NCBI GenBank assembly: GCA_964019055.1 | Contig: OZ025218.1 | Location: forward strand, 5,337,259-5,401,258 | Reading direction: 5' to 3' | Length of the DNA: 64,000 nt | Source: Anthopleura xanthogrammica | Lineage: Eukaryota; Cnidaria; Anthozoa; Actiniaria; Actiniidae | In this document: positions 350-53,987 of the stretch, piece after piece | Layout of the letters: every line of letters begins with the position of its first letter | Position numbering within the stretch: position 1 is the first letter of the stretch | The notes under the pieces: model-generated | What the model was told of the DNA's origin: nothing | The model's input: only the letters and a program-made list of their open reading frames with translations | The model's database searches: none | Made by a program: the position numbers and the translations under genes

Positions 350-350
<1 letters not shown>
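1..350 (-). pseudogene. Downstream part of a LINE-interrupted F-box gene (partial, runs off window)
   Basis: The minus strand is open without a stop from position 348 to the window edge (116 codons) and codes a Gln/Leu/Lys-rich, probably helical, segment ending with a basic stretch. It begins right after the LINE tail and the 6-bp duplication TAGATT (345-350). If the LINE between the two copies of that 6-mer is removed, the codons of this piece follow the F-box exon at 2090-2564 in the same frame (ACA GAA TCT ACC CTA ...). I therefore read it as the original continuation of that exon. No domain is recognised here. The 3' end lies outside the window. Confidence 0.6.
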
Positions 351-415
<65 letters not shown>

Positions 416-2089: not shown

Positions 2090-2564
2090 TAGATTCTGTG
2101 TAACGTGGTTCAATTCCAAAGTCCTGGAAATAATGCTGCTTCCAAACGTAATTTGCCGACTGGCAGAATTTTTGAAGTTGACGACAAGTTGTAGACATGG
2201 TACAAACATCTCGAGGTGGTAAGTAGGTCAGAACTAAAGTCAGGATTTCTGTAGGAAGTTCAAGAAGTTTGCAGGACGGCTGGACAGGGTTTAGACAGTC
2301 TTCTCTCGTTTTTTTGGTCAGATACTTTTTCGAAACATGTTTAAGTCCACGGCTTTGTACAAGATTGTCGTGACTACCGAGTTTTCCATCTGCAATCCAT
2401 CTGTTGAATTGCCTATAGCAAGCAGCGCATATTGTTGCGGTGTTACCGCTAAAAACCTCGTTAAAACAGGTCTTCAAGTCTTCAATCTTCTCAGCTTTAA
2501 TAGTATAAAGCCTGCTAGTTGTCTTAGTTGCGCAAGTGGCACACTTTTCTCGCACTCGCGGCAT
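717..2564 (-). CDS. Chimeric open frame: zinc finger + F-box fused to LINE reverse transcriptase (615 aa)
   Basis: This is one uninterrupted frame. Residues 1-157 are host sequence (zinc module 8-50, F-box about 98-145). From about residue 158 the frame is LINE RT, with YVDD at 336-339. The fusion arises because the LINE's 5' truncation point happens to be in frame with the exon it entered. It could yield an F-box-RT protein if transcribed, or it may be simple disruption; the sequence does not decide. The RT part has no endonuclease, so autonomous activity is unlikely. Confidence 0.6.
   Translation of the reverse strand: MPRVREKCATCATKTTSRLYTIKAEKIEDLKTCFNEVFSGNTATICAACYRQFNRWIADGKLGSHDNLVQSRGLKHVSKKYLTKKTREDCLNPVQPSCKLLELPTEILTLVLTYLPPRDVCTMSTTCRQLQKFCQSANYVWKQHYFQDFGIEPRYTESKEAEVIPILKEGDHEVAANNRPLSLLPTAAKICEKIALEQLNNYLISKKQLSPHQSGNRKCHSTETLNIYITDSILEAMNKKKATALVLLDLSKAFDSISHSRLLNKLSNVGASPATVNWFKSYLSNRTQSVRIDSTLSDYQTITHGVPQGAILSPLLFCIYLNDLPLAPQSCCLESYVDDSKVFLSFPLSDVDSALKELEQDLHRVAAWCCENQLLINPVKTKFLLIGTRQLLARLPVSQTVSFLGKSLEPVSSAKDLGVSIDTNLTYNSHITNVVSSCFSKLVQINRVKDSFDTKTLQLIISSLVFSKMLYCSTVWANTSATNLDKLQSIQNFACKIVTNSRKYDHVTPLLRRLNWLPVRQLLILRDSIMTYKCINNLAPSYLCNKFQKRHTIHERKTRNNDALQIPLYRTAAGQRSFVYRGTNIWNNLDKSIKNSPTLNSFKTAMKNYLNAELN
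2090..2564 (-). pseudogene. Upstream part of a zinc-finger/F-box gene (SINHCAF-like zinc module plus F-box)
   Basis: The exon opens at ATG 2564. Residues 8-50 hold CATC ... CF ... ICAACY ... RW. That layout resembles the N-terminal zinc module of SINHCAF/FAM60A (CxxC, SRxYT, CF, ICxxC, RW). Residues about 98-145 are a clear F-box (LELPTEILTLVLTYLPP ... C..L ... W). F-box proteins recruit substrates to SCF ubiquitin ligases through SKP1. The coding frame runs into the LINE at 2089 and resumes at 350. The host gene is therefore interrupted on this haplotype, although the zinc and F-box modules remain intact. The SINHCAF comparison is by motif only. Confidence 0.75.
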
Positions 2565-2636
2565 TACACGGCGGATAATATTTTGTTCATCAGCGCTTTA
2601 TTCATTCACCGAAAAGTGTCAATTTTTATGTAGCGT

Positions 2637-3015
2637 TTTATGTGTTTTTGTTGTCATCATTTGAGTACAATTTTCGGTTTATTAGCTAAACAAGATGCTA
2701 AATTTTGAGCTTATTTTTAAAACTTTCTTCAAATATTTTTAGTTAATCTTCGAAAACAATGTTTAAAGTAGATGTCCTGAGAAAATTGCTTCAATAGCTT
2801 GTATAATTTTTGAGTTATGATTTTTTTGTGTGCAAAGCTTGATTTCCGCCATTTTTCTTTCGAAAACTTGTCAAGATGGTCATATTCATTATCTCCAAAA
2901 CGAGCCCGGGACACCCCAATTTTCTTTTCATTTTTGGAATCAGCGTTAAATTCTGTGTAAAATATCTTTCTAAAAACCTTTTGTAATTATTCCTTGCTAA
3001 AGTAGTCAGTCACCT
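2637..3015 (+). repeat. Dispersed repeat family A, partial copy with one terminal end
   Basis: Long blocks match 33590-33878. Examples are the shared phrases AAAGTAGATGTCCTGAGAAA and GCAAAGCTTGATTTCCGCCA, and the end AAAGTAGTCAGTCACCTT. The copy at 33318-33878 has both terminal inverted repeats. This one has only the 3' end and looks truncated or rearranged at the other. Confidence 0.75.
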
Positions 3016-4112
3016 TGAGATAATTCCCTTGTTTTGCACTGCGCATCTTTCTGCGCATACGACTAAAAGCACGGAACTTACACAGCTTAGGCATTTTACT
3101 TTTATATTCTAGGTAAAGATTCTATTCAAAAATAAATTTCCATTTTTTTCTCTTTTTTGAGCGTAAAATTGCGATTTTTTACAACTCGCCCCAGTCTCCT
3201 CTCGACAAGTGTGATTTTTTTGACCATTTTGTGATGTTTTTCACGAAATATATATCTCGAAAACAAGCATGGTGACCCCCATTTTTTATTTGATATTTCA
3301 ATAAAATTGCTGCTGCGCATTATATATCAAAATATCAAGGAAAATTTATTGGATAAATTTTGAAATATTTCGATATTAAAGAATAGTTGAAGCGTGCGAT
3401 TTCTTGACGTTCGTAGAGGCGCACATATTCCCGTTTTTCACTAATATTTCAACTATAACAGTCATTGAATTACTTTGATACATTAAGAAGTTTAGCTTAA
3501 TTAGGAAACTTTGAATTATAGGTACGTTTTGTTATAAAGAAGTACTCTGAACCGAGAATAAAGGTTTTTGATTCCGACTTCCGGTTGCAACCACTTTTCG
3601 CCAAAAACCTATAAATTGCTATATTTGAAGAGCATCTAGCGCAAAAACGAGCATGGTGACCCCCTCTTTTTATTGCAGTTTTTAATTGTCCATTACATGA
3701 TTAATGCCCATGCAAAGTTTCAGAACAAAGTTATTGGTAAAATTTCTTTCGATGGAATCACCTTAACTTGTTTGGCGAAATCTATGAAAACGAATGACTT
3801 TCTTTTATTATGCCTTGAATTTTTCTAAAAATCATATTTTATAGCTTTCCTTGTGTTTCTGCAAAAGATTTTCTGGATTTGTTTTGCAATTTATTATAAA
3901 AAGCACTGGTAAGACTAGAATTCAGAACCGCCATCTTTGTTTCGACATTATCCCGAGTTAGTTTGGAGGTAAATATTTAACACTTATTGACTGGGACCGA
4001 GGGAAACAGTGTGTTTTGTGGTCCCGAGACGACGATGTTTCGTCGCTTTCAGTTGGTATATAACGAAGTGGAATATCCCGAGATAGCGAACCAATGAAAC
4101 TCTAGGAGCAAG
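3016..4112. other. Gene-free AT-rich stretch
   Basis: No convincing exon. The short phrase 'gcatggtgaccccc' occurs at about 3268 and 3649, and an inverted relative is at about 37682 ('ggggggtcaccgtactcg'). This suggests old dispersed-repeat debris. Confidence 0.5.
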
Positions 4113-4215
4113 GATGGCAGAGTTGGCTAGTGTGCGGCCTTCGGTGCGAGAATCCCGAGAATCCCGAATTCTATTCCCAGTAATCTCCCATCCTTGTTTC
4201 GACTTCTTCTTCTTT
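4113..4215 (+). mobile_element. tRNA-like SINE remnant
   Basis: GGATGGCAGAGTTGGCTAGT resembles the acceptor/D-arm and A-box of a Leu/Ser-type tRNA-derived SINE. The downstream CCGAATTCTATTCCC resembles a degenerate B-box. It does not fold as an intact tRNA. Confidence 0.4.
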
Positions 4216-4392
4216 CCGTGTAGCTTTAATTAGCTTTAAATACCAGTAAAACGGAACTGTGATGGAGGGGAAGGGGGGGGGATAAATGAGTAAGTACACC
4301 GTCGGTCTCAAGTTTATCAGTAACACTGACTTAAGTAACTGTCACGAGTTACCGACGTTAAATAAAGTTGATCCTTTACCTTTTGAGAACAC

Positions 4393-5303
4393 GCCATCTA
4401 TGTAGGAGGCTCCTTTGCAGCCGTTCTTAGGGTCGTCACGTCGTCACGCAACGTTTCGCTCCCCACTAACGTCTGCTTACTTGAGCAGAACAATCATTTC
4501 CAAGAATTGACCAATCAGCATAAACCTTCTAAAATCGAGAAGGTTCGTGCTGATTGGTCGTTGGACGACTTTGGCCGCAATACTTTTGCGGGAACCATAC
4601 GATAACGTATCTGATTTCAAACTTCGGTCTTTGCTGACTTATTTATCGTGGTTATCTCTTTCTCTAGCCAGTATTAACTGGAGATCCTACAATTTTATTT
4701 GAGAAAATAAGCGATATATTGAAGTAAGCGCTCGTAACACAAATCTGACAAACAATCAAGCTGTTTGGCGGATGTGAAGTGTGAAGAGCACTGAAGTTTT
4801 TCCAAACGCATTCATCTTCATTGGTGCTAAGGTCACCCTAAGGTCGCCAACATAAAAATAAATCTAAGAAAAATCCGTCTTGTTTGTCCGTAAAAATCTC
4901 AAAACCAAATGGCAAGAAGATATGTGTAAAGAAGGACTTTTACAGGCTCCGACGACGAAGAATTCGAAGTAGCTTCCGAAATTTAGTTTATTACACGGTG
5001 TTCAAGCTATTTACATGTATTTATATCAGTGCCATCATTTCTGCTTTATACAAAACCAGTTCGCTTTAATTGGCTTTTGCGCAACTTGATGATAGACTAT
5101 GAACAACATCGATCTAGTGTCACCGCAGAATTTTCTATCGACGTTTGTAATTGGGTCATCGAAAACAATTGGTCGATTTGGATTGGCTCATGATCACAAT
5201 TGGAAAGGAATGTTCTGCTCAAGTAAGCAGACGTTCGTGGGGAGAGAAGTATTGCGTGACGACCCTAAGAACGTCTGCGTAGGAGGCTATCTATGTAGGT
5301 TCC
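4393..5303. mobile_element. TIR element (MITE-like), about 0.9 kb, arms about 100 bp
   Basis: The left arm (about 4393-4502) and the inverted right arm (about 5201-5303) share CGTTCTTAGGGTCGTCACG and CGTCTGCTTACTTGAGCAGA. No transposase is recognised inside, so it is probably non-autonomous. End positions are approximate because the arms have diverged. Confidence 0.7.
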
Positions 5304-14420: not shown

Positions 14421-15407
14421 TTATATATTGACCAGTGGCTCTGTGGTCTTGATCGACGCTTCAAAATGCGACGCTGCATCCTGCCTTGGATTTATAAGTC
14501 CGAGCCCCCCTAGTCGCACTGGAAGTGCGACAAGGTCCCTTTCGTTCTTGGTGCAGTGATGGTCTGTAATTGATGGTATAAGAACATCAGCAATTGCACG
14601 CTCTAGGGGTTCTAGTAGCTCTTCTATATCTGGAAGCGTTCGGAGATAATATGTCCAACGGTGCCGTAGTCCAAAAGTGAAGGCCGCATAACATGCTTGG
14701 GGATATGTTGAGCCAAATTCTGCTAGCTTTACCACCTGGCTCACCCAGTCTTCTACTTTTCCTTCAACGTACTCTTCCAGGTATGCTTTAGAGTCCAGGA
14801 CTGCGCCTAAATGCTTTTGACCCTGCGTAGAGATGTTAATCGCAGTCCCTTTAAAGATAGCTCGAGCATGCTCTTCCTTGTCAGGTTTTGTAATAAGCCA
14901 ACACTTTTTGGCATTAGGGTAATACCCAAGATTAGGCCCAGCCTCAGTCAGTTCGTCCCACCACAGCTTAGTCTCCTCCAGTGATCCGGAACCACTTGCG
15001 TCATCAGCAAACCAACACTGTTTCAAATTACTTAAAGTACTCAAACGAGATATTAAAGGTTGTAAACTGATGGCGTACATCGCCATTGCTAGAGGATCCC
15101 CTTGTGTTGTGCCCTCTGCAGACTTGAGTTCTTTTCCTCCGGTTATGAATAGTCTCGCTGGTTCTCGATACGTATTGATAGCGTAGGTTGCAATAGGTGG
15201 ATAGAGTATTCTTATATTATGGAGGGCAGCAGCTCTGTTAAGTGCATTGAATGCATTTGAGGCATCGATCAAGAGTACAGCATCCGTTTCGTCAGCCTCA
15301 AAGATAGAGTGCATTGCATGAACTGCTGCTTCGCTTCCACTCCTAATACCTGCGCAAACCTGTAACGATCCACTGGCCTCGATAATATCTTGCTTGGTAA
15401 CCTTCAT
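14421..15407 (-). pseudogene. LINE reverse transcriptase core (328 aa)
   Basis: RT motif A is [14 protein letters not shown] (residues 45-58), motif B is [15 protein letters not shown] (98-112), and the catalytic FADD lies at residues 133-136 (nt 15000-15011). Downstream are the thumb and LGGLGL region typical of R2/R4-like elements. The catalytic aspartates are intact, but the flanking frames are broken. Confidence 0.85.
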
Positions 15408-16456
15408 GACGCACTTTCAATCACTCTCCTGATAACTTCACCGACACCAATAGGGCGGACCGCGCCCTCGCCCTTGTCTAGAGGGATGAGCCTGTTAGCT
15501 AGTATTGGCTCGATAGTTCGTGGGTCAATGTACTCTGTGCATAGTTTTCTAGCCATTGTTGCCAACGCGTCACAAAGGTTGACACTTGATTTTTTAAATG
15601 ATTTGCACGCGAGAATTCGTTTGAATCCGTTTGCATCAACATTTGAAGGACCACCAGAGCCTTTGGTTCGTAGAGCTGCCTCACGTATCATTTCGCCGTC
15701 GATCTGCTGGTATAACGAGTCGTGTATTTCTTCGGCTGGTCCAAAAAGTATCGACCCGAGCTTTGCGTCTTGTGCTTTAGGGTGTTTCTCTTGGAGTTGT
15801 TTCATAACGTCATCAGTAAGCGGTAGCACTCCGCCACACTCATCCTCACTCAGATATCTCAATGCTGAATTTATCTGGCCCTCCATTACCAATTTGGCGA
15901 ATATCTTGGCTTTATTTAGGGGCTCTGTCTTCTTGGTCTTAATTAAGCGCTTTTGGATCGACCGCCCCTCGCGGAGTAGGCTATCAATTTCCCCTTCTTT
16001 CCAGAGAGCCAGGCGCTTGGCCAAACAATCTTGGTGATGTTTTGCTTTTGATTTCATGGTTGGCTTTTGTAGTGCCGTTGCCAATAGAACAATGGCAGCT
16101 TTCAGAGCTATGTGTTGCATTTGTGATGCATTGTTCCAGTCAGATATGTGTTGTGTTAGTTGGTCAATGAACTCACGCCCAACTTTGCCATACGGGACAA
16201 GAAACGCGTTTTTTCGCCATTGCGTGATTTCATCATATGCTTTAGTTATTATTGATGAATTGACTGTTATTATTGTCCCATCCGCCTTGTGTCCCCAATA
16301 GACAGTTGATGGCGTGTCAACAGCATTGTAGTCGGGTAAACGTCCTGGTACATGCTTGCCGGCACGGGCTTCGCTTAAATCACTTTCAATTGTTGAGTGT
16401 TCAATCTCAACAAAAGATGGTGGTTCCGCGGGGAGTTGTACTGTAGATGTATGCAA
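15404..16456 (-). pseudogene. LINE ORF, N-terminal region up to the RT fingers (350 aa)
   Basis: It encodes the region before the RT palm, including [16 protein letters not shown] and the fingers motif [20 protein letters not shown]. The frame ends at TGA 15404-15406, and the RT continues in another frame from ATG 15407, so an indel has broken what should be one protein. A further upstream piece (EIMKELWDDKEY ... GFKGQNLRDQASRLEK, about 16590-16700) is separated by another stop. Confidence 0.75.
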
Positions 16457-21394: not shown

Positions 21395-23166
21395 GCTTTG
21401 AAAGCAGTTTTCCATCTTTATGTCCCCCAAGAGGCTAAACAAGTTACACTTCAGTTCTCTAATCAACTAAAGATACACGAGGATGTAACCATAAGTTTGA
21501 CGTGTGATAAAGAACATGGTGCAGATGGTAAATACTGGAAATCGAAATTCATTTACTTTGATCCTGATGAGGTTGAGACGTTGAGGTACGAGTATATTGT
21601 TAAATATCGCGTGGGAATGATTAAGAAAAGTTTCAAGAAAGTTAAAGGCTTGTTTTCAGTTGAAACAGGTTCCAAAGAGACTGAAGCTTACTTCAGACGA
21701 GAAATAAATGGCGGAAATATTTATGATGTGTTTAGAAAGCCCGATAATGATAAAGATGATGAATGTATTTTCGAAGGTCAATTCTTTTATGTCAAGATGT
21801 TGTACAGTGATGTGAACGAGGAGAACTTGAAAAGAATGATGATCGAATGTGAACATGTTGGATTTGCAAATCCAAACTCCACCTTCAATGATAGAAAGAG
21901 TTTTTTCAAATGGGTGGCATCAACAGCAAGGTCTCTCACACCTTCTAAAAGTGCATATATTTGTGCACTTTTGGGTCAGTTTTTTAAAAACATCCGATGT
22001 ATACACCCTCTTAGTATGTACCTGCCTAACAGTACGAAAACAGCCGATGCCTTGTTATTGGAACTGAGCCATTTCCACAAAGAACATCTAACTAATACTT
22101 CATTGAGTTTTATCAAATCCATTGATAATATTCTTCTTCAAGCAAGCTCCTACAAGAACACCTTGGGCTACATATTATATTTTGGCCATCTTTTTGATGA
22201 AACATCTGTCATAAATTTTGTCAAAAGTAATCTAGTACCGTGTATTGACGAGAAAGATTTCAATGAAATTTCGTCGAAGATCGTAAAGAGGCTAATGGAA
22301 TGCAAAGACAAGGATAAACTGAACACGTTCTTGACTTTTGTTATAAGTGAATCACCATCAGTTGACTGTTTATTCAAGCTTTACAGAGTTTTGGAAACGA
22401 GTAATGGTCTAACAGATTTGGTTGAGCCCGTTGTTTCTAAGTTTACTCAGATGTTCTTCACTCGAGAGAGGCAACCAGATCTCTTAGAGACACCTGTATG
22501 GAAAGATGTGCCAAACACTTTGAAACCCAAGCTTGCCATCCATTTTTGTGATGCAGTGACGAAACAACTCGAAACAAGAACATCCTCTTTTGACTATGCC
22601 GTCTTGAAGGACCTCATCCTCGATAAAGTTCTACAGGAATGGGCTACGACAAATGTAGTCAATTTGCTAAGAGTCATCGCAAGTTCTAGGAATAAAGGCC
22701 TTCCTGATGTCACTTGTGAAGTCTTGAACGCGTATAACTTCCACTCATTTTGGGAAAACATGGATCTCAAAGACAAAGGAAGCATTATTCAAGAACTGTT
22801 GCCTAAAAAGATGCAAGCAAGGCAAAGTGAATGCTATTCCAAAACGCAAAAAGTTGTTGGTGCCTTTCAAGTCCTTCAAGAGCTAAGTGAGATTCCAGCA
22901 ATCAAGCAATACGAAGAGCTTATGGAATCTATTTGGAAATACGTTTGTCAGGAGACACAAAGACTTGAACTAAAAGCTATTGTAGACGCCTATGATGTCA
23001 TTCGAAGCTCTTCAAAAGAGATTAGCAGACGTTGGTATATGAGATTATTAACCTTGACTGTAAAACAACAGCAAGCTTGCCTGAATGATGTGAAGCTGAA
23101 GCTTATTGAAATAGTGCGGTCTTCTAGCTCGTTCACTACAAGCTCACAGTCCATAGAAATCGATGG
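21395..23166 (+). CDS. RNF213-like: RNF213-like giant AAA+ protein, exon 2 (CBM20-like domain and N-terminal stalk)
   Basis: The exon starts after a clean acceptor (ttttttactag|GCTTTG) and ends before a consensus donor (GATGG|GTAAGT at 23167) in phase 2. It codes about 590 residues. The first ~75 (AVFHLYVPQ ... W.SKF.YFD ... LRYEYIVKYR) resemble the beta-sandwich CBM20-like domain that starts the folded part of RNF213. The rest is an alpha-helical solenoid like the RNF213 stalk. The open frame's apparent start at 21398 is TTG, so this is not a true N-terminus. The two bases left at its end join the single base at the start of the 41286 exon to make a Gly codon. Confidence 0.8.
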
Positions 23167-25424: not shown

Positions 25425-28400
25425 CTGGTAAAAGATAAAGTAAATTTTAGTTCCTGTCATGTCGTAATTTGATGGTTTGTCGTTTGTCCTCATGTCAGTG
25501 TTTTTTTACATTTACTATAAATTCTTCACCTGAGACGTTTTGAAAAGGAATTGTCTTTGCTTTTCCAACATCATATGCTCGCCAGGCTTTAAGACTGTTT
25601 TCTTCGTACTCAAAATTATTTAGTTTGCTTATCCCCTTTATTTTCTCGAAATCTGGCATAGGTGGCCCATCAATTTCTTCTACGACAGCAACCCTTTAAA
25701 ATAAAGAAGTTTGTTTATGCTAACGTCCGAAAATAAGCCTCCCTAAATTCAAGCCCCCCCTCCCCCGAAATGAAAAGTCCCCCTAATTTATAACAAAAAA
25801 CTTCCTATATAATAAGCCCCCCTTCGAATAAAAGCCAATGGGGGTATTTTAAGGAGCGACTCGAAAATACGTTGATGCGGTAGTCAAGCTAAATGTTATT
25901 TTTTAAATGTTGCTTTATAACACAAAAGACATTCATCAATTGTATTTAATTTGTTGTTTTAACTTCAATTGAAATATTTCATAAAGCTTCTTGTTGTTGA
26001 TTCCATCTTTAGAAAATTTAAAATTTCTTAATTGTCCGCAGCTCACAAAAATTGAAGACACAAAATACCCCCCGAAGATAGCGAAAATAATCCCCCCTGA
26101 ATCATTTATTATTATAATTATAATTTATTATAATCCATTATTTTCGGAGGTTTACAGCTGGCCTACAAATAAACGAGGGAATTACGTGACTAGATTATTT
26201 GAAAAGTTAGTTACCGACATCGATTAACTTACTAACCTAACACCTTCAATGCCAGCGTCACTATCTCACTTGTACGATTCACGTAACGCCTCCTTGTTCT
26301 CTCTGTTACTTCGTTCCATTCAAGCCATGGTCTCCCAAGAGGTTGGATTGAGCACTCTTCCAAGAATGCGTTAAGCTTTGATCGTTGGGCAAGTTGGGCA
26401 TCGTTACATTCTTCGAATGATGATGCTGTACTGCACGTTTCCGGGGAAAAAACAACACTTTCGTCGACAATTTTGAGATCCCTAATATATTCGGTTACTT
26501 TTTCCAGAGAAAGTAGGCTTTTACTGTTTCCTGTAAAATTTAAAATATTCTAATTAGTAGTTTGGTAAGAGGAAAGCATTTCATGTCAATATTACAGCTC
26601 ACCTTTGCAGCACTTGCAGGAACTGCGTCTGTGTTAAACTCCACTAAAGGTGATAAAGTTATCGTGAAGTTGTCCCTGCATTGTTTACAGATTGCTGAAA
26701 TCATAATGGAACCCAATTAATGAACAAAATAGTATTTAATTGCCTGTTTTACTATTTACATATTTGTATATCTCAAGAATAAGTGTATTAGTTGTTTCCA
26801 ATACATAAGCTGATTCTGCACTCTTTAATCCACACTGGCCTTTTGGGGACCGATATTTATGACCTGCAGATTCAGCTGGAATGCAGCACATATAGATTAC
26901 TTCATAGAAAGTGCGGCGTACGGGGTTATATTCACGAGTTGTTTGTGTAAAACACGAACGAGCGAGTCTTCGAGCGAGTGAGTGTTTTTACACAAACAAC
27001 GAGTGAATATAGCCCCGTACAAAGCACTTTCTATGATGTTTTCTCTTTATTATATATATAACTAGAATTCACATACAAACACGTTTATTTTGATTGAATA
27101 AAAATGACAAATTTTGTCGAAACTTTCGTAAGTTTTAAGTTTATAAGTTAAAATGTCATGCAACTGTACATAATTAAAGTGAAAAACTCCTCATGTCAGT
27201 TTATAAAAGGAAAATGAATATACAAAAAGTCAATATAAATATCAAAAATGTACTGTTTTTCATAATTAGTCGCTGTCTGGCGAATCCAAGATGCAATAAC
27301 GGCGGCGCTTTGTTGTTGTTTCTTCACGCAAAGTTGGACTTTCTGCTTGGCTACTAGTGCTTCCCTTGTTCGTCTGAATTCTTGCCCTTCTATTATCGTT
27401 GTTGGGTAGTCTTTCTTTCGTAAGTAACGGTCAAAGCTCGATATGAACGACCTTAAAGTCGTCGGTTCGTATTCATCCCCATCTTTCTTCCTTACTTCAA
27501 CGAGAAAAGCAGAAAGCAGCTCGTCTAAATCTCTTGGCTGGATTTCTTCCAGGTTTTGCTGCACATTTTTGTTTCAAGATATGTAGTCAATAAAGCCAGG
27601 TCTCTCTTCGTCTTGCTTAGTGTGTTTTTGTTTTCTTGGTTTTGAATAAACTCATCTACCGGCACATCTAGTGACACAAAACGACTCGCCATTTTGTTCA
27701 CATCAACAAAGCTACAGAAAACACAACTTTGCTTTGGCGGGAAGCCATTCAAATGTCACAATTGCTCGTTTTATGATTGGTTGGTTTGGTCAACTCTAAA
27801 TTTTGATTGGTTATATTTTTACACAGTGAAAAGCTGTACGCGATGCTAATTGGTCGTATTGCATTTTTCACCAGTGAAATATAAAGCATAGAGATTTTTA
27901 TAATAGAGATTTATTGTATGAAATTCTAGTTATATATATAATAAATAGAGGATATTACACGGTGGCGCGAACATATGAAGTTTATCTTCGAGTGGAAAAA
28001 AAGATTTCACGAGTGAGCGTAGCGAACAAGTGAAATCTTTTTTCCACGAGAAGATAAACTTCATATGTTCAAGCCAACGTGTAATTTTCTTTTTATTATA
28101 TGGATATGAGTGTTTTAGCTGGAAAATAAATAAAAAAATAGACGAAAATGTTCTCCAAAGTGTCTTTATTTTGCAAATAGTCAAAATATAGCAATAATAG
28201 CAAACAATTTATCTTAAAACATGTAAAAAACAAAATGTATATAAATATTGAAAAGTTTCTCTACATTTTGCTGTTTTTAAAGGGATTTAAACTGTTTTTA
28301 AAGTGGCTTACTGGCTTTCGTCGCTGTCTATGATCACACGCCGTCTTATAGAAGATGGTTCGTACTCTTCACCGTTTTTCTTTCGTACGCCAAGGACAAA

Positions 28401-41285: not shown

Positions 41286-44200
41286 AGGAAGGGAAGAGAT
41301 CTTACTCATCCTTCTAAACCAGATTATGATGCCAACCGTCAAGTCACAGATCGATCAAAACACAATCAGTAAAATAATAAGACCCGTGTTAACAGACAAG
41401 AAATTGTGGACGGTTATTTTCCAAGCATCAGGAGAAACACATCGGCTTCACGCTCATCCTCACTTCGTCACTGTTGTAAAGGCGATTACTTGGCTTGGTG
41501 AATCGATCAGAACCGGCGAAATTCCTGTGGGCTATCTGAAGAAACCGAAGGATCAAAAAGAGGTTGCAGAATTGCTAGCTTTAGCAAGGTGCCCTACCGA
41601 CCCAAGTGACCGTTCAGACTTGTCACTTGTTAGTCTATGGGAGGAAAAGATGACAATTCTTTCCCAGGAGAGAGAAAGGTTCGAAGAGATCTTGAATTCC
41701 CTCAAAGATGCCATAGATCTCACTAATAAAGTTACAAGAAGCGGAGATTTAGTGATTGTCAAAGATTATAAGGATGTTCTGGAGAAATATAATCACTGCC
41801 AAAAGATCTATCATCAGGCACTTTTTGTGGAAATTCGTCAGGGGAGTTTCTGGGGTTGCCTTGAAGGTCTGATAGAACTCTCTGAGAAACTACACAAACA
41901 CCATCTTACCACCTCAATGCTTTTCGTGAACTTTGCAGAAAACCTCATAAAAGAGGGTGCCCTCAAAAAGAAGAAAGAAATCGAAGAAGAAAAGTTGGTT
42001 GAGGACAAGTTTTTAGAAGACAGTGAAGATATCGACAACAAACCCAACCCTTCCATTGTCCAAAATAATGGCATGACTGTCAGAGAGGTTTTGGTACTCC
42101 TTGCAAGCGATTGTGTTTCTAAGATTACTGATACTTATGAAAAAATCTTAAAAACAGAAGTGTTGCCTGCAGAACTGGATACCCTTTTGGCCAGTATCAA
42201 GAAAGAAGACATTGACAAAGAATTTGAGATCATTGGCAATTTGCAGAAAAAGGGTCGCCTACCGCCTAACATTTTGCATATGCTGCACAACTATGCTAAG
42301 TATGAAGATAAAAAAGAAAGAATCCAAACAGCACTGCGATGTTTGAATGCTCTAGGATACAAGACACCAAATGGCGATTCATATTTATTCCTTCAAACTC
42401 TTGAGGCCTTCTTGCAATGCAAAGAATCGGGGACTTTGGAAAGCATTTCAAACCAAGTTGATAGCATGGAGAACCTTGACAGGAAGCTTAAAACCGACCT
42501 AGTGGACATTCTTAGTGAATTGTCAGAAGCCATAGAGCTCACACATTTCATACTGAAAACTGCGAAAGACAATATGGTAGATTTGGTTGACGCTGTCGAA
42601 GAACATTCAGATCAGCTCATCCAAGAGTCCACGGTGTCCGACCTCATCGATGTTCACAGGTTCCTAAGTGATTTGCTTTCCAGCAAACCAGATGACCCCG
42701 GAAAGTTCCTGGATCAAATTATTGAAGCGTATGAAAACTTAACAAACGACCACTCCGGCATTTCAAAGAAACTCGAAAAAAGTGGCACACCAAAGACAAA
42801 GATGGCTGCAAAAATCAAGGTGTGTAGCTGTAACGTGCACAGCCTTCGAGGTCTGTACATGACTTTGTCTAATCGAGGTGAATTGACCAAGGAAATAATC
42901 AAAAATGCTGTTAATGATGGGTGTTACCAAGTTAGAATTACAGATAATGGAAGTTTTGATGTACTTTTGACTTACACACGTAAAGGCCAAACTAATGCTA
43001 CGGCAAAGTACAACATGGATGAGCTGAATGACCTCAGAAGCCGTGCTCTGTTGATCGTAAATACTCACAAGCCAAATGTTGATGAGATCGAGCGAGAAGC
43101 TAGTGTCATCACGTCCGAAGAACTGAACCAGTTTATTGAGCAGGTCGACCTTATCACCGAGATCACTCGCAAATATGATGCATTGAGAAGGTCAGGATTT
43201 CCCAAATATGGAAAGTCGTTTTGGGTCAAGATGGAATCGACCGAGGAGATCAAGGAAGAGGAGAAACAGGTAGAGAGAGAACTGACAGATTGGAACTCCA
43301 AGTTGCACGATGTACGTAAAAAGAACTTCTTCTGTAACTATTTCCATGCAACGCAATTGTGGGAGCTCGGATCCTTTTTTAAAAAATCGGAATCTGCAAA
43401 AGAGATTTCAAACAAAATATTGGCTTTGTTTCGATGTATCGATAGCCAAGTCAGTAAGGAAGACTTGCCATCCTTCCAATCTAGGTACAAACCCCCAAGA
43501 AACAGTGACATCGAGAGTGAACTTCAAGCTACTGGATCTGCATTAGATGACATATTCAGGTCCTCTCAACAGAAACCTCTTCCAGTTATTGCATCGACTA
43601 TGGAAATTAAAGCCATTGTCGAGCCTGGGAAGCTTTATGTGAGCGTGCTTGAGCATGGAAGCGCCCAAACCGTCCATGTCATCATGACACTTTTCCTGAA
43701 CACTTGTGCATGTCTACCAAAACCGAGCCAACTCTTGTTTTGCCACTCACAAACAACATGGGAAGAAATAGAACTGTTTCTTTCTAGAACCTTTGAAGCC
43801 CATTCTCACGGTATTAGCTGTAAGCTCCATTGTCTCGCCAACGTGGAGAGTCTTCCCAACGACATCCAGTTCCAACTTGTAGACAACTTGAAAAGACTGA
43901 CGGACGAAGACAAATCACCATACCGTCTTGCAGTTGTCTGTCGTGGTGGACCACATCATCACATCGCAGATCAATTTGGAGATAAAACACATTACTTCGG
44001 AGGAATGCCTGATTCAGAGTTGAGAGAGAGGTTTATGATAGAATGTCCAAATACATACTTTGTAAGGTCAGACCTTCCGGGGCTTGGAAAATCTGAGGAG
44101 GTTTTCTCACATGCGGCAGAAAGAGGAATATCGTTCGTTAGTTTCCCAATAAGTGGTCCGTTTTCGCGAAAATACCTGGTTGACAGGCTGTGTGATTTAC

Positions 44201-47200
44201 AGCTCAAGAAGTTCCAGGCACTTCACTTTGACATAGGAGAGGTGGATGATCCAAATGCTTTAGATACATTTCTGTTCGAGTTGATTGTGACTGGCATGGT
44301 TTGTTCAGAAGCCCGACTTTTCAGCTTACCTACTAACCACATTTATATTGAGATCGCGAACACTTTGCAGCAAAAAATGCGAGACTCACTGCCGATTTGC
44401 AAGTGCTTCCAAAAACTGCCAGTGGATTGGAAAGACTGCGACAATTTGATCTGCAGCACAGAGCTGACAAGTCCGGTGCAAGTGGTTTGCCAGTACTTAA
44501 AGGCATATGATAGTGGAACACTTGAAAGTCAGGAAATCCTTTTCAGTGGCCCAAAGAAGGTCAAACGTCTGAGTTCCTCAGCCTGCAAGGCACTTTTGTC
44601 CGAGCATTTCTTTTCTGGCGAAGACCAATCGTTCAATATTCTCGAGAATTTCATTTCCGTACTTTCTGATCAGCTCATGAAGTTCACAAGGAGTCCCTAC
44701 TTCAAACCAAAGAACCTCGTTGATATGGTCGGAAAGTCACATGATGTACGTGTTCGTCTTTTCAAAGCACTTCTTGGAGTTGCTACAAGTTTTGCAGCCC
44801 GATCAATCGCCACGTGTAAGGCAACACAGGCCGAAGCTCTAACTGAAGAGCAAGCGAGAGAGGCTTTGAAGAAGATGCAGTCAGGAGCGGAGACGACCGC
44901 CGCTGAAATGGCTAACAGAGTAGAGGGAATGATTCAGTGGTCTGACAACGAGCACCTTGTGATTATGCTTCATGGAGCTGGTGCAGTAACAGCAATTTAC
45001 CGAGACGTGAACAAAGTGCCACCGGGAGTCAAAGATCTCTTCCAAAGCCAATCTATCAAAGGAAAGGGTAAAGGACTGGAGGATTACAAGAGTATGAGCC
45101 AAGACGAACTTCAGACAAGATTAGAGCGAATTTCTGATGCTCAGGAAAAGCCCGATAAAACTGAATTACAGTCTCTAGGCTATGCTCTCACCCCAGACAA
45201 CATCCTGAAGATGGCCTTGATCATACAAAGAATGCAAGCAAACATTCCCGTTATCATAATGGGGGAAACTGGATGTGGTAAGACCAGCCTAGTACAGTAT
45301 CTAGCCAAAACCTGTAACACGCCTTTCTGTGTGTTCAACTTCCATGCAGGTGTGACAGAAAAACAAATAACTGACTTCATTTCCTCCAAAGACAAAGAGG
45401 CAAGAAATCACCAGGAACAAAACAAATCGTTGTGGGTATTTTTAGATGAAATCAATACCTGTGACTATCTTGGAACCATCAACGAGATTGTATGCCATCG
45501 GTCTCTCTATGGTAAACCGTTAGCTCCAAACCTCGTTTTTGTTGCTGCCTGCAATCCATACCGCCTACGCTCCTCTGGACAAGTAATGACGGCTGGCTTA
45601 GGAGGAAAAACCTTGTTTGATGAGTACTCTAAGTTGGTGTATCGAGTACATCCATTGCCAGAAACTATGATTGACTACATATGGGATTATGGAGCGCTAA
45701 GTGAAGAGGACGAAAAGGCATACATTGGCCGCATGGTGGAGAGGCTCTTTGATGTGAGGTTCAATGTTAAGCTGCTCGTGGAGTTGCTGGCTGCTTCTCA
45801 GGATTTTGTTAGAAAGGCCGACGAAAGTTCCTTCTGTGTGAGCCTCCGAGATGTACATCGTACTACGATATTAATCAAGTGGTTTCACAAGATCCTCCAA
45901 AAACGATCTCCTTTCCTTCATGCAGGACTTTCGTCACGCATACAACAGTTCTTTTGGAAAGCATCACAGTGTGATGATAAAGATCGTGCCATAGTGCTGT
46001 CACTTGCACACTGCTATCTTTCAAGGCTTCCAACGACAGACTTAAGACGCAAATATTGTAAAGAGATGACTAAAATCTTTGTGAAGAGTAGAGGATACAA
46101 GTTTTTATACCCCAGTGATGGATTTGAACAAATTGTTCGAGCCGAACAGGAGGACTGGCTCCTAAGAATGGAGCTTCCACCAGGAACAGCTAGAAATGCA
46201 GCCCTACGCGAGAATGTGTTTGTCATTCTTGTCTGCATCTTGAACAGAATGCCAGTATTTGTCGTCGGAAAACCAGGCTGCAGCAAATCTCTCTCAATGC
46301 AGGTCATCAGAAGTAACCTGCGGGGAAGGGACTCCAAAGATGGTTTCTTGAAAACACTGCCACAACTTTTCGTGGTGTCTTTCCAAGGCTCTGAATCGTC
46401 TACATCTGAAGGCATTGAAAAGGTCTTCGAAAAGGCTAAAAAGTACAAAGAAAAAGCTGAAAACGTTCTACCTGTTGTTTTGTTAGATGAAATAGGCCTG
46501 GCAGAGGTTTCCAAGTTCAATCCACTAAAAGTGCTTCATCGTCTTCTGGAACCTGGTAAAGGTCAATTCCCCGATGTTGCAGTAGTTGGGATTTCAAATT
46601 GGGCTCTGGATGCCGCGAAGATGAACCGGGCAGTACATCTTTCACGACCAGAACCAGACGAAGAAGATCTTTACGAAACTGGGCTTTCTATTCGAGAAGC
46701 ACAGATAAACAAGCCTAGAGAGCGCCCATTCTTGAGGTCAGACGAAAGTCGCTGTAAAAACCAGTTGAAATGCCTTGCTGAAGCTTATTACCAGTATCAC
46801 TCCAAACAAGAGCACGACAACTTTCACGGACTCCGAGATTACTACTCCATGGTCAAGTGTCTTGAAATATCTGCGACTAAGCCAGGCCAAAACAATGAAA
46901 GCATCCAAAAAGCAATGCAGAGGAACTTTGGTGGCCTTTCCAGGGAGAAAGGCGAATTCCAAACACTATTCCTGGAAAAGCTAGAGAACTTCCAAGCCAC
47001 CGAGGAAGTTCTGGAATTCCCTGTCACAGAACTTATCCGAGATAATCTACATGACAAGTTAGCAAGACATTTGATGATCATCACAAATGGAGATTCAGCA
47101 ATCGGCATCTTAGACCAAACTTTGGCAGATTTGAATAAAGAAAAGATCACAATTTTCGGCAGCAGATTTGAGGAAGATCTTTCTGCTGACTATAATCACC

Positions 47201-50200
47201 GTGTTCTCAGCCGAATAATCCTGTGCATGGAACAGAATTGTGTTCTTATCTTACGCGACCTGGAAGGCGTTTATGGAAGTTTGTATGATATGCTTAACCA
47301 AAACTACATCGTGGTTGGCGGCAAGAAAAACTGCCGAATCGCTTTAGGAGCTTTCAGCAACCCCATGTGCCAAGTGGACGATGGGTTTCGTTGTATCGTG
47401 TTGGTTGACGAAAACAAAGTTGATTACTCTGACCCTCCTTTCTTGAACCGATTTGAGAAACAACTTCTTCGATTCTCAGATGTCCTCAATGTCCAACAGA
47501 AAGAAATCATCGAAGAACTGCATGAATGGGTGAAGAGCATCTCGACTGTGACAGGATTCGAGAAAGAGTTCAGTCAAGTGGACATGTTTGCTGGATACCA
47601 CGAAGACACTCTGCCATCTTTGGTCCTTTCTCACAGCCAAGATCAGGATGTCACTGCCAAGGAAGATGTCATAGCTCGTTGTAAAACTGATTTGATGTTT
47701 GTAGCCACACCAGATGCTGTTATTCGAGCTCGTAAGTCTCATCTCTACCAAAGTAATGACGAAGAGGTGAATGAGCTTTACCAAGACTACTTTGAAAATC
47801 CTATCCATCAAGGTTTGAAAGTTTTCCTACAACACTTTCTGGATGCCCAAGACATGGATTCAAAGAGCATGAAACTGTTAGTTATGACTCACAGCAGCGT
47901 TCATACTGACGTTTCCAAATGTGTCAATGAAGACGTTTTCGACGTACAGACAGAGAAATTGAGTTTCTTCAAGTCTGAGAAGGAATTGTCAAAGAGAATA
48001 CAGTATTTCTGGAAGGAATCCAAAGCAAACCTCTTAGTCGTACAGTGCAGACCTGATTCTGATGCTCCCCACATGCTGTTAGTGAAGTCAACCATTGAGC
48101 AACAGCAGAAGGAGTACTTAGACTCTCCTCAAAGCTCTGAATTCCCAAAGCATGTTTGCTTTGTCATTCATCTTCAGCGTGAAGCGAAAAGCGAAGAGGA
48201 TCAACGCAGTTATCGCTGGCAGTTCAACTTCCTAAGTGGATGGAAACAGGTCATGATTGATGTTCTCGAAACCCCAGTGATCCAAATCAAGGAAATACTT
48301 GGAAGTTCAATCGAAAAGGTTTTGGACTCTGAAACCATGCCTTTTGAGAAGGTGGCAGCGGACCAGTTGCTATGGTGCTTCACCCGTATCAAGTACCCGC
48401 CTTCAAAGCAACCTGAACTGAAAGACACAATTGCCCTTGTTGAGTCCATTACGTCCTCTGCCACAATGATGGAATGCTTCAAGACATTGTGTTTTCAGTG
48501 GATAAGAGAAAAGGAAGACCACCCAAATTCAGGAAATAGAGACCAATGGCAAGTGTCTGTAGCCTGTGACCGCAAAACACTGATCAACTGCTCCACTCTC
48601 GTCAAAGCAATGCAGTATTTTGTTACACATCTTGTACGTCGTCCTTTGACAAGAATTGTGTATTTCTTACAAAAGGAATCAGCTTGGAAATCAATGATCG
48701 AATGCGGGGGCATGACTGAACAAGAGAGTGGGAAGTTATTATGTATGGACAGTGTTTTTAACATCCACGATGTTCCTGATCCACAAGATGCGGAGTCTCT
48801 GGTCGTCAGTGTCAGTCACCTGGAACTTCAATACCCTTTTTCCTTTTTGTTCTTCAAAAGAGTCGATGATCTTAAAGAGTTTTTCTCCGAAGAGTACAGA
48901 AGAAAGTGCCTCGAAGTAGAAGACACTTTAGATGAAAATGACGAACTGTCAGAAGCCTCGAAAAAATCAGTAATCGTCAGAGTTGCAAGAAAGGTGCAGC
49001 AAGTTATCACAGAAATCCTTGATTCTGATTACCTTGTCACTTACATACAAGTTTACTTGGATGATGCCCTTGACATTATATCTGAAGAGTTTTCTCAGCA
49101 TTTGACCAGAGAGGATAGAATAAGCATACTGAAAGCCCATTTTGTGGATCATTTGCCAGACGTAACATCAGGAGAGATCAATGATATTCCTCTCGCAGTT
49201 ACACAACTTCACAGCTTGTTTTGGATGGAAGGAGAGACGATAGCACCACTCCTTCACTTTATACAAACTATCATACCTAAAGTACCACTGACTGTTGACA
49301 ACCTAATCAGTAAATTTACGGATATGAAAATGGAAGATATGAAAGCTAAAGAACTCGCGTATAAGCAGAAGAAAGAACCTCCTGGAGACAGTGTAGAGAA
49401 TGTTCTCAAAATTTCCAACCAGGCAAAACTAGGTGGTGGAGAAAATGCTGGGCAAAAGTTTAAGGAAACGGTGATGGAAGAGCTAGACGAATTATCAATA
49501 CCAAACAAACCCGAGAAGCATGACGAACAAAGCCAGGTTTACAGAGAAGAATATGACAACATCAAGCTGCTAACAGAAAAGAGTATAAAGAGCGAGGACA
49601 CACACCCAAGAGAAAATCAGGAAAGCGACGGGATCGTGAAATCTAGTTCTAGTGTGGAGGACGTAAAAGATGACTCTGTTGGAAAAGGTTTGGAGGAGTA
49701 TAACTCTGAGACGATAGACGAGACAAATGAGGATCTTAGTAAAAACGATGGAAGCCTTGAAATTGTCGACTTAGAAAACGATTCTGATAAAGATCATGGT
49801 GATGGAAGCTCTGCCGATGACGATCAGAATTATCATAATGAAGATAATGTGGGCGGAGCACATGCAGAGGCTGATCAGGAGGAAAAGATAACTTTTGAAG
49901 AATTTGTTGTGGAAGAAATCTGCTTGTCTTTGCTTCCGAACGATGTCATTATTAAGTCTTCTGGAGGTATCGTAGCCTGGAGGAGTGTAACAACCTTTGT
50001 TTTATCAACCGCTACTAAGTTTTATACGCAAGTTCCAGCATTTCACTATCTAAAAGTCTGTTATGATTTGTCAACTTTGGTTCATTCACGCCCGGAAGCA
50101 ATGGAATATTTTCTTTACGCCCTTGGAGAACTTGCAAGTATTGTGGAAGAAAAGAACTACTTGGATTCTATGAGAATCTTCGAGTCAATTGATAAATGTA

Positions 50201-53200
50201 TTAAAGATCTTAGAGATGTAGGTGAAGACGAAGAAAAACTGGACGAGTTTCTTTTCTTGTTTTATGCAAGATGCATCGAGTCAAACCCAGACACGCCTCT
50301 TATGGGTGAAATCTTAAAACAAATCTCATCTACTGACGATGAAAGGATTTTACAACTGGCAGTTCCAATCCTATTCCGAATTTTCCGCACAGAGGAAGAA
50401 GCCTTTTCCTTTGAACATTTTGCCAAAGTACTTGATTCACCAGATGATTTAGAGGATTTCCCAAACTTGATCTATGTGAATGAGGCTCTAACTGAGCTGC
50501 AAGCAAGCGAAGTAAAGGAATTTGATTGCCATTTTAACGTCATTTGTTGTGATCTGATCAATAGAATGGCCTTTAAGGAACTAAACTTGACGAAGGTATC
50601 CAGCACAGATGACCCTGTACTCAAAGTCTTCCACAAAGCTGTAGAAATATTGTCGGCGTTAGCTGAAGACGAGGCCCCCAACTGCACGTTTGGGATTATC
50701 TGTGCTGTGTCTTATCTTCGGGCTTTCATTTATGCACTGGCGGGATTCCTTATGGAACAACGGAGCGTACTGGCAAATCATAGCCTGCTTTTGAGTGAGA
50801 TTTTTAAGGAACTAATTGAGGAATTGCCATCCATAAAGGGAAGCCTTAACCTTTTACTCATAAAAGAGCTACGACAAGGAATATGCTTGTATGAAATAAC
50901 ACAACTGGTAGACAGTTGCGAAAAGCTTAATCCCTTGAAGAAAATTGTGAGTTCAGAAGCCACTTCCCTAAAGAAAATAGGCTGCGATCCTTTTCAAAAT
51001 CACGCTGACAAATCAGAAACTGAAATTGCTTTGGGCAAGCACGTGGCAGGTTCTGGTTCAAAGCCTCTCGATGGAATCCTAGGTAGCATCATGGTTACTC
51101 ATAAAAGAAGAATGGAACTTGCAGCTGTTGTCTTCGAACAGTTCTACTTGGTTCGTTCCATCCGTAACCTAAAAGACACCGAAGACGAAGCGGCGAAGTA
51201 CATACTAGACAAGCTGGCTTCTGTCCCAGATCCATACAAAAGGTTTCTACTCAGAATTGCTAACCGAGAAAGTTTCAAATGTTTGCAGCTTGAAGTCACG
51301 CCAGAATCTAGAGCCACAGATGTTGAGGTTGCTGTCCTAATTCAACATTTGTCCGCCATCATTACATCAAGATATAATGGGAAGAGTAGAAACCCAGTTG
51401 TTTGTTGTGTCGTCGACCCTACAGTGATGAGTAATTCTTACATTTTGGCAGCACCTTCCGATACCTCTGGATACGAATGCTGGAATTACTTTAAGGCGAG
51501 TCGGCATCAAAATATCTTGTTTTTCTCCTGCAGTACCTGTGGTACACGATTCACAACAAGCAAAGAGGAATCCACCATGAAATGTCCTAACTGTGGATAC
51601 GCCTGCGAGAGGGAAGAAATGAAAGATAAGGAGTCAATCCCCACAGCTCAAAAGGGATACCTCTATTGCCATCCCGAATCAATGCGTGATGAGATGCTTT
51701 GTACAAGAAACCTAGATCCTGTTGAGTTTCGAATCTTACATCTGATCATTCACGTGGCACTTTTTGCCGGATACTCCCTTGACCTCACCACTGACAAGTT
51801 GTCTGAATTCATGAAGGCAGAAAGTCCATCAGAAATATGTTTCCAATACATACAAGATGATCTGGATGTATTAAGTGCTATATTTTGTTGTACAAAAGAC
51901 AGGACCATTGCGTTCTTGCACCACCTTCTTAAAGAAGCAATGCCATTGCTGACAGACGATTCAGGTCTTCCGTTGCCCCATGACGAGAAGACGAGGTTGT
52001 CTTGGGAGTCGTATTTCTCTAAACTAGTCAAGCCTTTAGTCCAAACGTTTCGTGAAAACCACTTGAAGCCTAGAAACGAGGGCCTTGATACAGAGGACAA
52101 AGGTGCAAGTGGAGGTGAGGAGAAAGATCTAGAAATCCTGATCGAAGAAGTTGAAGAGCCCCAGTTCCCAGACATCGCAGCACGAAACGTCTATCTTCCA
52201 CGGCTTTTCCGAACAAAGCACCAGAACTCTTTTGAAAAACTCAGAGAATTCTACTTGAATAGTTCAAAGGAGGTGAAAGATAATCATCAACTACTTGGAC
52301 TTTTCCTTGACTACCACAAGACATTGAATCGCATTGGAAATCTGGTAGCTCTTAATGCTTGGAGTCGACGGGTGGATGTCTTGCTAAGTCGAAGCTTGAC
52401 TAGAGCGGATGCAAAGAAAAGCAAGATTGGCGATGCTGTCACCGGTGGGGCATTTAAAGAGTTCAGTAAGGCATGGGAAAATGTTGTTCCTCTCTTTAAT
52501 GACGATATGGAGGATCACAAACACATCAGTGAGATTTCTCCCGTTGGATTGTGCTTAGTGGAAAGACAAGATTTGGGTCAATATCTGTGTGCTGCGTTTG
52601 CTGGCCTAGCAAAGCTGCAAAATGAGTTTCTTGATAAATGCTTGGCCATAGCTGCCTCTGGAAAATGTCCTGCACTTCAGTTCCTTTGCAAAAATGGTGC
52701 CATATGCAGCTTGCCATCGGTGCACGTTCAAGATGCCAAAGAAAACGAGATCATTCAATACGAATGGGGAGACAGATTGTTAGAGCACTCACGATATAAC
52801 CTCGAGTATGGACACGGGACTGAAATTAACTACGACCTTACCAAGATAGAGAAAGATATGGCGGGACGTTTCCTTCTTGGTAAAGCATATCTGATGACTA
52901 AGAAGGGCCTGCGCGAGTTCGTTTTCTCGAAGCAGCTGTTCCATGATTGTGCAAACATTCTGAATGACTTGGATCTTTCTATTCCTCAGGCGGAACTCCC
53001 AAGAAACATCGAAACAGAGCTTTTGGGATCAGTAGGGAAATCATTAGATGGTAATCAAGTTCTTTTGGAACACATGGAAATAGTTTTGTGCTTTCTTAAA
53101 CGTACTGGAGGTATGCCTGAAGAAAGCCTATTCGATTACGTGGAAACATGGATGACCACTGCAAGACCATTCCCAAAAGATCTTCTTCCCAAGTCGCAAA

Positions 53201-53610
53201 ACGCAATTCAACTCAGGCATGTTTGCGCACTTTATGAATTCCTCGAAGATAAACTTGCTGTGAAGGCCATTGATTGTGTTGGGGATGAATACCGTAAAGA
53301 ATTTCCAGATAACATCAAAGTGGAAATGGATGGCAATAATTTTTTACAAGATGAAAGCAATGGACAAAGAATCCTCGATGCCACAGTTACAGCCATAAAG
53401 AGATTCATCTTCAGATACCTCAACATGAAGCCAGCAGGGAATCGTTGCTTGGTAGAGTTCATGGAAGATCTGTCTCTCTGGCCCATAAGTATAAGAGCCA
53501 AGAATGATGATTTCAAAATTGAAGAATTCATTCCAACACTGTTCCCAGAGATGCTGACAATTGCACATGCATTCAAGGTGCATAAATACTATCGAGATCG
53601 TCTTAACGAG
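41286..53610 (+). CDS. RNF213-like: RNF213-like giant AAA+ protein, exon 3: AAA core and RING-less E3 module (12.3 kb exon)
   Basis: The acceptor is ttttgcag|AGGAAG and the donor is AACGAG|GTAAGAG (phase 0). It encodes 4,108 codons. Numbering from ATG 41326: helical stalk to about 850; degenerate AAA2 P-loop LPGLGKS (K922); AAA3 Walker A GETGCGKT (K1319) and Walker B FLDE (D1374 E1375); AAA4 Walker A GKPGCSKS (K1654) and Walker B LLDEIGLAE (D1721 E1722), then sensor-like GISNWALD. An acidic low-complexity linker lies at about 2697-2855 and an alpha-helical E3 shell follows. RNF213 is a cytosolic ATPase/E3 that acts on lipid droplets and coats invading bacteria. No RING finger occurs anywhere in this frame. 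At the RZ-finger position a Cys4 motif stands instead (C3402, C3405, C3420, C3423). The C-terminus aligns by eye to the end of RNF213. Confidence 0.9.
45262..46491 (+). other. Catalytic AAA3-AAA4 ATPase sites
   Basis: AAA3 Walker A lies at nt 45262-45285 and Walker B DE at 45445-45450. AAA4 Walker A lies at 46267-46290 and Walker B DE at 46486-46491. In mouse RNF213 these two modules hydrolyse ATP. All key Lys, Asp and Glu residues are present, so the motor part looks active. Confidence 0.85.
51529..51606 (+). other. Cys4 zinc motif replacing the RZ finger
   Basis: FSCSTCGTRF ... MKCPNCGYAC gives C-x2-C-x14-C-x2-C with one more Cys (C3427). It is followed by GYLYCHPESMRDEMLCTRNL and a hydrophobic helix that match the segment after the RZ finger in vertebrate RNF213 (GHVLGNP...TCDR). 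RZ fingers have C-x3-H and end IGG. Both the His and the GG are missing here. Confidence 0.75.
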
Positions 53611-53987
53611 GTAAGAGTTTTACAGTTTCTTTTTCCTGATGTTGGCTTCAATTTGGTTAGTAATTTCCGTTTTTAAAGAAAAAATTATGTTAGTTGAGTG
53701 TCCTGTGCATTAAAATATTGGTGTTTATGTGTGTGTGTGTGATAGTGATGTCACTAATTGGTGTGAAAGCACTAAATCTACCCGACTCCTCTTTTTAACT
53801 GTATACCCTTGAAATGTTTTTTCTTCACCAAGTGGCTCGACTAAAAGTCCCCTTCTTGGCTTTGTTAATCTCTACAACAATATATATATATATTAAATAT
53901 ATCTGGGATTTAGCAATGGCATCTTTATACGTTATTCGTCCTCTTAAATTACAATTGGAATTCAGAAGTTGATTTTTGTGGACGGAG

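What the first reader, a model, noticed from the sequence alone, without database searches (positions are those of the whole stretch)
41286..53610. RNF213-like ATPase whose E3 module has no RING finger
The frame is continuous for 4,108 codons, so a RING cannot be hidden in an unseen exon between AAA core and C-terminus. The AAA2-4 P-loops, the E3 shell and the C-terminal domain are all present, but no C-x2-C...C-x-H-x2-C...C-x2-C series occurs. Published work shows the RNF213 RING is dispensable for some ubiquitylation. A natural RING-less paralogue would be an evolutionary test of that RING-independent mechanism, possibly a specialised immune paralogue in cnidarians.
Basis: partly seen in the sequence, partly recalled or inferred. 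Interest (0 to 1): 0.9.

Follow-up and report, generated by a model that had tools for sequence, protein, structure and literature searches.

The report
RNF213-like giant without ubiquitin-ligase active sites
A sea-anemone gene encodes a giant ATP-driven protein built like the human immune protein RNF213 but without its RING finger and without the cysteine that does RNF213's ubiquitin chemistry, and its many coral relatives look much the same, so it probably works as a motor or coat that no longer attaches ubiquitin.

The parts
21395..23166 (+). Upstream coding exon: beta-rich N-terminal domain (possibly CBM20-like) and helical N-arm
   Evidence: tblastn matches to N-termini of P0039 51-609, P0008 116-670, P0085 244-786; acceptor ACTAG|G and donor GATGG|GTAAGT; in-phase join colinear with P0039 (2-4697 against 51-4644); AF2 model, pLDDT 62, beta strands within residues 2-111 then helices
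41286..53676 (+). Giant 3' exon: AAA core, E3 module, CTD and stop codon
   Evidence: ORF and translation; acceptor TTTTGCAG|AGG
44074..44097 (+). P-loop LPGLGKSE (residues 917-924), assigned to AAA2 by order
   Evidence: assignment inferred
45262..45288 (+). AAA3 Walker A GETGCGKTS (residues 1313-1321)
   Evidence: alignment with RNF213 P0038
45433..45459 (+). AAA3 Walker B WVFLDEINT (residues 1370-1378)
46267..46290 (+). AAA4 Walker A GKPGCSKS (residues 1648-1655)
46474..46506 (+). AAA4 Walker B VVLLDEIGLAE (residues 1717-1727)
49375..49893 (+). Acidic linker rich in D/E (28%), no Cys (residues 2684-2856)
49978..50274 (+). RING slot without a RING: W2885 to C2983 is 99 residues, against 158 in primate RNF213 and 92 in Rhizophagus (anchors chosen by eye)
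50083..53673 (+). E3-module scaffold modelled by AlphaFold2 (residues 2920-4116)
51520..51606 (+). RZ-position zinc ribbon lacking the catalytic Cys (residues 3399-3427): ligands C3402, C3405, C3420, C3423; extra C3427
   Evidence: four short strands in the model
52729..53673 (+). C-terminal domain region (approximate; residues about 3802-4116)
   Evidence: phmmer 3802-3982 to RNF213; hhalign

Best explanation
The gene is a sea-anemone member of an old anthozoan family of RNF213-like giants. It keeps the dynein-like ATPase and the E3-module scaffold but has neither of RNF213's two ligase elements: no RING, and an RZ ribbon reduced to its zinc site with the ubiquitin-accepting cysteine gone. 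Most likely it is a ubiquitin-transfer-dead ('pseudo-E3') machine. ATP binding and hydrolysis in AAA3/AAA4 drive conformational change or self-assembly on a target (membrane, vacuole or pathogen), and the E3 module is now a structural or binding platform. Shown by sequence: architecture, missing RING, retained zinc ligands, missing nucleophile, intact Walker motifs, conservation among the relatives retrieved. Inferred: lack of ligase activity, coat or motor function, immune role.
For: RING absent. At the RZ site, 110 of 116 anthozoan-type rows keep the four-ligand pattern while 114 of 116 have no Cys between the ligand pairs; fungi have Cys at the catalytic column in 39 of 42. Profile-profile alignment to fungal E3 modules (E 1e-134, 1,108 columns) pairs the ligands and puts E3414 at the fungal catalytic-Cys column, beside a 3-residue deletion. 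Ligand conservation 113/115, 114/115, 115/115, 109/113 argues for selection, not decay. Walker A/B intact in AAA3 and AAA4. The model matches RNF213 well above other chains compared. Published precedent: RZ-dead human RNF213 (H4509A, C4516S) deposits no ubiquitin yet still coats T. gondii vacuoles, while Walker mutants do not coat (PMC11549300, passages).
Against: No activity was tested. A relocated nucleophile is not excluded: C2912, C3075 and C3743 are nearly invariant and C3427 occurs in 47 of 115. With a single vertebrate sequence, hhalign against P0038 placed the ribbon differently (P0001 C3405 near the catalytic Cys), although the anthozoan-fungal comparison, with many sequences on each side, supports the ligand alignment. 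Nematostella P0039 and P0067 do have a Cys between the ligand pairs, 6 of 116 rows lack the full ligand pattern, and 3 of 42 fungi also lack the catalytic-column Cys. The same published RZ-dead mutants did not coat bacteria (PMC11549300), so a coat without ligation is target-dependent.
Confidence: 0.6

Rival explanations
1. It is still an active transthiolating E3: another cysteine (C3427 beside the ribbon, or one of the nearly invariant C2912, C3075, C3743) has taken over from the RZ cysteine, and E2 docks on the CTD.
For: E3 scaffold and zinc ribbon strongly conserved; C2912 115/115, C3075 114/115, C3743 112/114.
Against: C3427 is in only 47 of 115; C3075 sits in a CCD motif also present in the RZ-competent fungi, so probably structural. 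The mouse E2-contact residues F5093/W5097/Y5106/E5108 (PMC12075652 section 10), placed in P0038 by their spacing, have no evident counterpart in the window protein, but nor do they in fungi, so that is inconclusive.
Confidence: 0.2
2. It is a dominant-negative or decoy partner: it co-assembles with, or stands in for, an active RNF213 in the same animal and tunes or protects it.
For: The human RING is the docking site of a bacterial effector (PMC12440826, passages), which a RING-less copy would escape.
Against: No anthozoan hit listed in three searches carried a RING or RZ Pfam, though the lists were truncated (120 of 1,670) or word-limited and cannot exclude an active RNF213.
Confidence: 0.12
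3. One reading: a RING-less but otherwise competent E3 that ubiquitylates through the RING-independent RNF213 mechanism.
For: RING is dispensable for auto-ubiquitylation in mouse RNF213 (PMC7311170 section 8) and for ubiquitylation of bacteria in human RNF213 (PMC11549300 passages).
Against: The RING-independent mechanism needs the RZ cysteine, which is missing here.
Confidence: 0.05

Closest known systems
Vertebrate RNF213 (mysterin)
   Different: No RING; RZ catalytic Cys and GECGRP/IGG motifs absent; identity about 32% over the AAA core to primate P0038; long acidic linker
Glomeromycotina RNF213-like RZ proteins (Rhizophagus and others)
   Same: No RING (0 of 45 fungal hits carry a RING Pfam; none by pattern); E3 modules colinear over 1,108 columns; Diversispora AAA core 41%
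   Different: They keep the RZ finger: Cys at the catalytic column in 39 of 42; Pfam ZnF_RZ in 40 of the 45
Uncharacterized anthozoan giants: Actinostola QZH41_001214/001215, Nematostella LOC5509270, Montipora, Stylophora, Pocillopora, Desmophyllum, Dendronephthya, Paramuricea
   Same: Same family by AAA core; no RING found; Actinostola 74% and Nematostella 66% in the AAA core
   Different: Some octocoral copies are named 'E3 ubiquitin-protein ligase RNF213(-like)' in the source, a name not supported by the active-site residues of those whose RZ site aligned (e.g. P0133)
ZNFX1 (the other RZ-finger protein)
   Same: RZ-type zinc finger (link stated in PMC11549300 passages)
   Different: No AAA core (recalled); not compared here

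Membership tests
RNF213 | Dynein-like AAA core with catalytic AAA3 and AAA4 | tested here: met
   PDB phmmer E 5e-150; Walker A/B aligned
RNF213 | E3-back/shell/core scaffold and CTD | tested here: met
RNF213 | RING domain inserted in the E3-back | tested here: not met
RNF213 | RZ finger with zinc ligands and catalytic Cys (human C4516) | tested here: not met
   Ligand ribbon kept, catalytic Cys absent; no ZnF_RZ Pfam match at E<=10, control P0034 2.6e-18
RNF213 | N-terminal CBM20 domain and N-arm | tested here: inconclusive
   Upstream exon has a beta-rich then helical predicted fold; no CBM20 Pfam hit; Foldseek best hit RNF213 9g08 but only E 0.0095
RNF213 | E2 (UBE2L3) contact residues in the CTD | tested here: inconclusive
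   Not recognisable in the window protein or in fungi; weak alignment there
RNF213 | Ubiquitin ligase activity | not testable with these tools
   Needs purified protein
Glomeromycotina RZ-type RNF213-like proteins | RZ catalytic Cys without a RING | tested here: not met
   RING-less: yes; catalytic Cys: no

The most novel reading that the evidence does not exclude
Anthozoans carry a large, ancient, multi-copy family of RNF213-design AAA+ giants that have given up ubiquitin ligation altogether while selection holds the ATPase and the empty RZ zinc ribbon. They would be ATP-driven coats or motors of cell-autonomous immunity or of the symbiosome, showing that the motor/coat function of RNF213 is separable from its ligase in nature, and that the RING is a late insertion in the vertebrate-type lineage.
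Probability: 0.4. Interest if true: 0.78.

Novelty: new variant of a known kind. Interest (0 to 1): 0.6.

Why it matters
What RNF213's ATPase does apart from its ligase is an open question in moyamoya disease and antimicrobial immunity. A family that evolution has kept without either ligase element would let the ATPase and coat function be studied alone. The fungal relatives, RING-less but with the RZ cysteine, would let RING-independent ligation be studied alone. Together they turn the two-ligase puzzle of RNF213 into a natural dissection. The result also warns that anthozoan 'RNF213' annotations should not be read as ubiquitin ligases without checking the RZ cysteine.

Tried and rejected
Chance or mis-frame: rejected. 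The 4,116-codon frame is homologous over nearly its whole length to proteins from several anthozoans.

Hidden RING in an upstream exon: the one homologous exon found (21395-23166) has no C-x2-C. A short first exon (about 50 residues in Nematostella) was not located.

Pseudogene: rejected for this copy. It is intact, with motifs and zinc ligands conserved.

Misalignment of the ribbon: the single-sequence hhalign against primate RNF213 gave a different local pairing. I preferred the profile comparison with fungi because both sides have many sequences and the C-x-C-G and C-P-x-C motifs coincide.

Own-genome search (genome search) was asked seven times and never answered, so copy number in this genome is unknown.

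Whether anthozoans also have an RZ- or RING-bearing RNF213 could not be settled. One search found 1,670 relatives but listed 120, none with a RING or RZ Pfam. No bilaterian invertebrate RNF213 was compared, so RING gain versus loss is unresolved; the tree (36 sequences; P0010 and P0082 skipped for fragment length) is rooted arbitrarily on one primate sequence.

Rows dropped before counts: of 123 anthozoan-type proteins, 116 gave residues at the RZ site (six had no aligned row and P0113 had none at the site) and 115 passed the 900-1,700-residue span filter. Of 46 fungal proteins 42 gave residues at the site.

Literature searched. None of the titles or abstract beginnings listed describes a RING-less, RZ-dead RNF213 family, but searches listed only 20 of more; 'RNF213' with 'pseudoenzyme' gave 0 papers. 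Seen: PMC7311170 (section 8 and passages), PMC12075652 (section 10 and passages), PMC11549300, PMC12440826, PMC13319465, PMC9993606 and PMC9481131 (passages). The paper cited as defining the RZ finger (Otten 2021) is not held and is known only through those.

Full report
What is there. The window's plus strand carries a single 12.4-kb exon, 41286-53676, open for 4,116 codons from ATG 41326. The gene continues upstream. An ORF at 21395-23166 with acceptor and donor signals matches the N-termini of the Montipora, Nematostella and Stylophora proteins (28%, 30% and 26%). Its phase fits the giant exon, and the joined 4,720-residue product is colinear with Nematostella P0039 (2-4697 against 51-4644, 42.8%). 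The 18-kb intron contains a weak transposon-like ORF. The beta-rich start and helical remainder predicted for the upstream exon fit an RNF213-type N-arm, possibly with a CBM20-like domain, but this is not proven.

RING. None by Pfam or pattern (1 of 170 proteins, the primate control; some of the 170 are fragments, 160 non-control proteins gave an E3-module span). By anchors chosen by eye, the stretch W2885-C2983 is 99 residues against 158 in primate RNF213 and 92 in Rhizophagus. The difference of 59 residues happens to equal the mouse RING cut (3941-3999) that left auto-ubiquitylation intact (PMC7311170 section 8). The reported range of the structural match begins at human 4054 (model 45), just after the RING residues named in PMC12440826 (up to L4036).

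In human RNF213 the RZ finger has ligands C4505, H4509, C4525, C4528 and proposed nucleophile C4516. C4516S or H4509A abolishes ubiquitylation of bacteria and vacuoles, whereas RING inactivation had no effect on two bacteria and only partly impaired the T. gondii vacuole (PMC11549300 passages). The window protein has CSTCGTRFTTSKEESTMKCPNC at that place. Against fungal RNF213-like E3 modules (profile-profile E 1e-134) the four ligands pair up, E3414 stands at the fungal catalytic-Cys column, and the three residues after it (GRP in Rhizophagus) are deleted. Across the set: anthozoan-type 116 rows, four-ligand pattern in 110, no Cys between the ligand pairs in 114 (exceptions P0039 and P0067); fungi 42 rows, Cys at the catalytic column in 39. 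Ligand conservation among 115 anthozoan-type E3 modules is 113/115, 114/115, 115/115 and 109/113; the nearby C3427 is 47/115. The metal site thus looks selected and the chemistry site not. 'Anthozoan-type' means neither fungal nor the primate control; members that carry an organism name are anthozoans, most are unnamed.

How widespread. E3-region search: 37 hits, of which 28 are anthozoan-type without RING or RZ Pfam, 8 fungal with RZ, 1 primate with both. AAA-core search: 1,670 hits, 120 listed, none of those with RING or RZ Pfam. Fungal E3 search: 47 hits, 45 fungal, 40 of these with RZ Pfam and none with RING Pfam. In an AAA-core tree of 36 sequences the window groups with the two Actinostola copies (support 1.0) and then Nematostella (0.99), and named scleractinian and octocoral sequences fall in separate groups. 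The family therefore probably predates the hexacoral-octocoral split, and the window is probably from a sea anemone (inference).

How it most likely works. With ATPase motifs intact and both ligase elements missing, the simplest reading is an ATP-driven assembly or remodelling machine that does not transfer ubiquitin. Human RZ-dead RNF213 still coats T. gondii vacuoles without depositing ubiquitin, Walker mutants do not coat, and the RZ-dead alleles fail to coat bacteria (PMC11549300). So a coat without ligation is possible on some targets. This step is inference. A relocated nucleophile and a regulatory decoy role are the main rivals. The induction of a gene named RNF213 in poly(I:C)-treated Nematostella cells (PMC13319465) is suggestive only.

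Verdict. The RING is missing, but so is the RZ nucleophile, so this protein cannot serve as the proposed evolutionary test of RING-independent ligation. The fungal relatives can. The anthozoan family is a new variant: an RNF213 scaffold that seems to have left the ligase business.

Noticed in passing
window 720-2597 (-): An open frame of 626 codons with an F-box (112-158) followed by a reverse transcriptase domain (179-416), an unusual F-box/RT combination.
   Followed up: no
window 14424-15416 (-): Weak reverse-transcriptase match just below the Pfam cutoff, a probable retroelement remnant upstream of the first located exon.
   Followed up: no
window 27199-27573 (-): QRICH1-like match just below cutoff inside the 18-kb intron, possibly a transposon fragment.
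   Followed up: no
P0030-P0037, P0134-P0170 (Glomeromycotina proteins): Arbuscular mycorrhizal fungi have many RNF213-like giants with an RZ finger and catalytic Cys but no RING; the Diversispora AAA core is closer to the window protein (41%) than primate RNF213 is (about 32%).
   Followed up: partly
P0039 (Nematostella LOC5509270), RZ site: The Nematostella copy has a divergent ribbon (YCEKCQGLTVMFKCSTAKPRCASC) with a Cys between the ligand pairs, unlike 114 of 116 anthozoan-type rows.
   Followed up: no
P0082 and P0158 (Diversispora): Fungal relatives named or annotated with a CBM20 domain, suggesting the carbohydrate-binding N-terminus of RNF213 may also be old.
   Followed up: no
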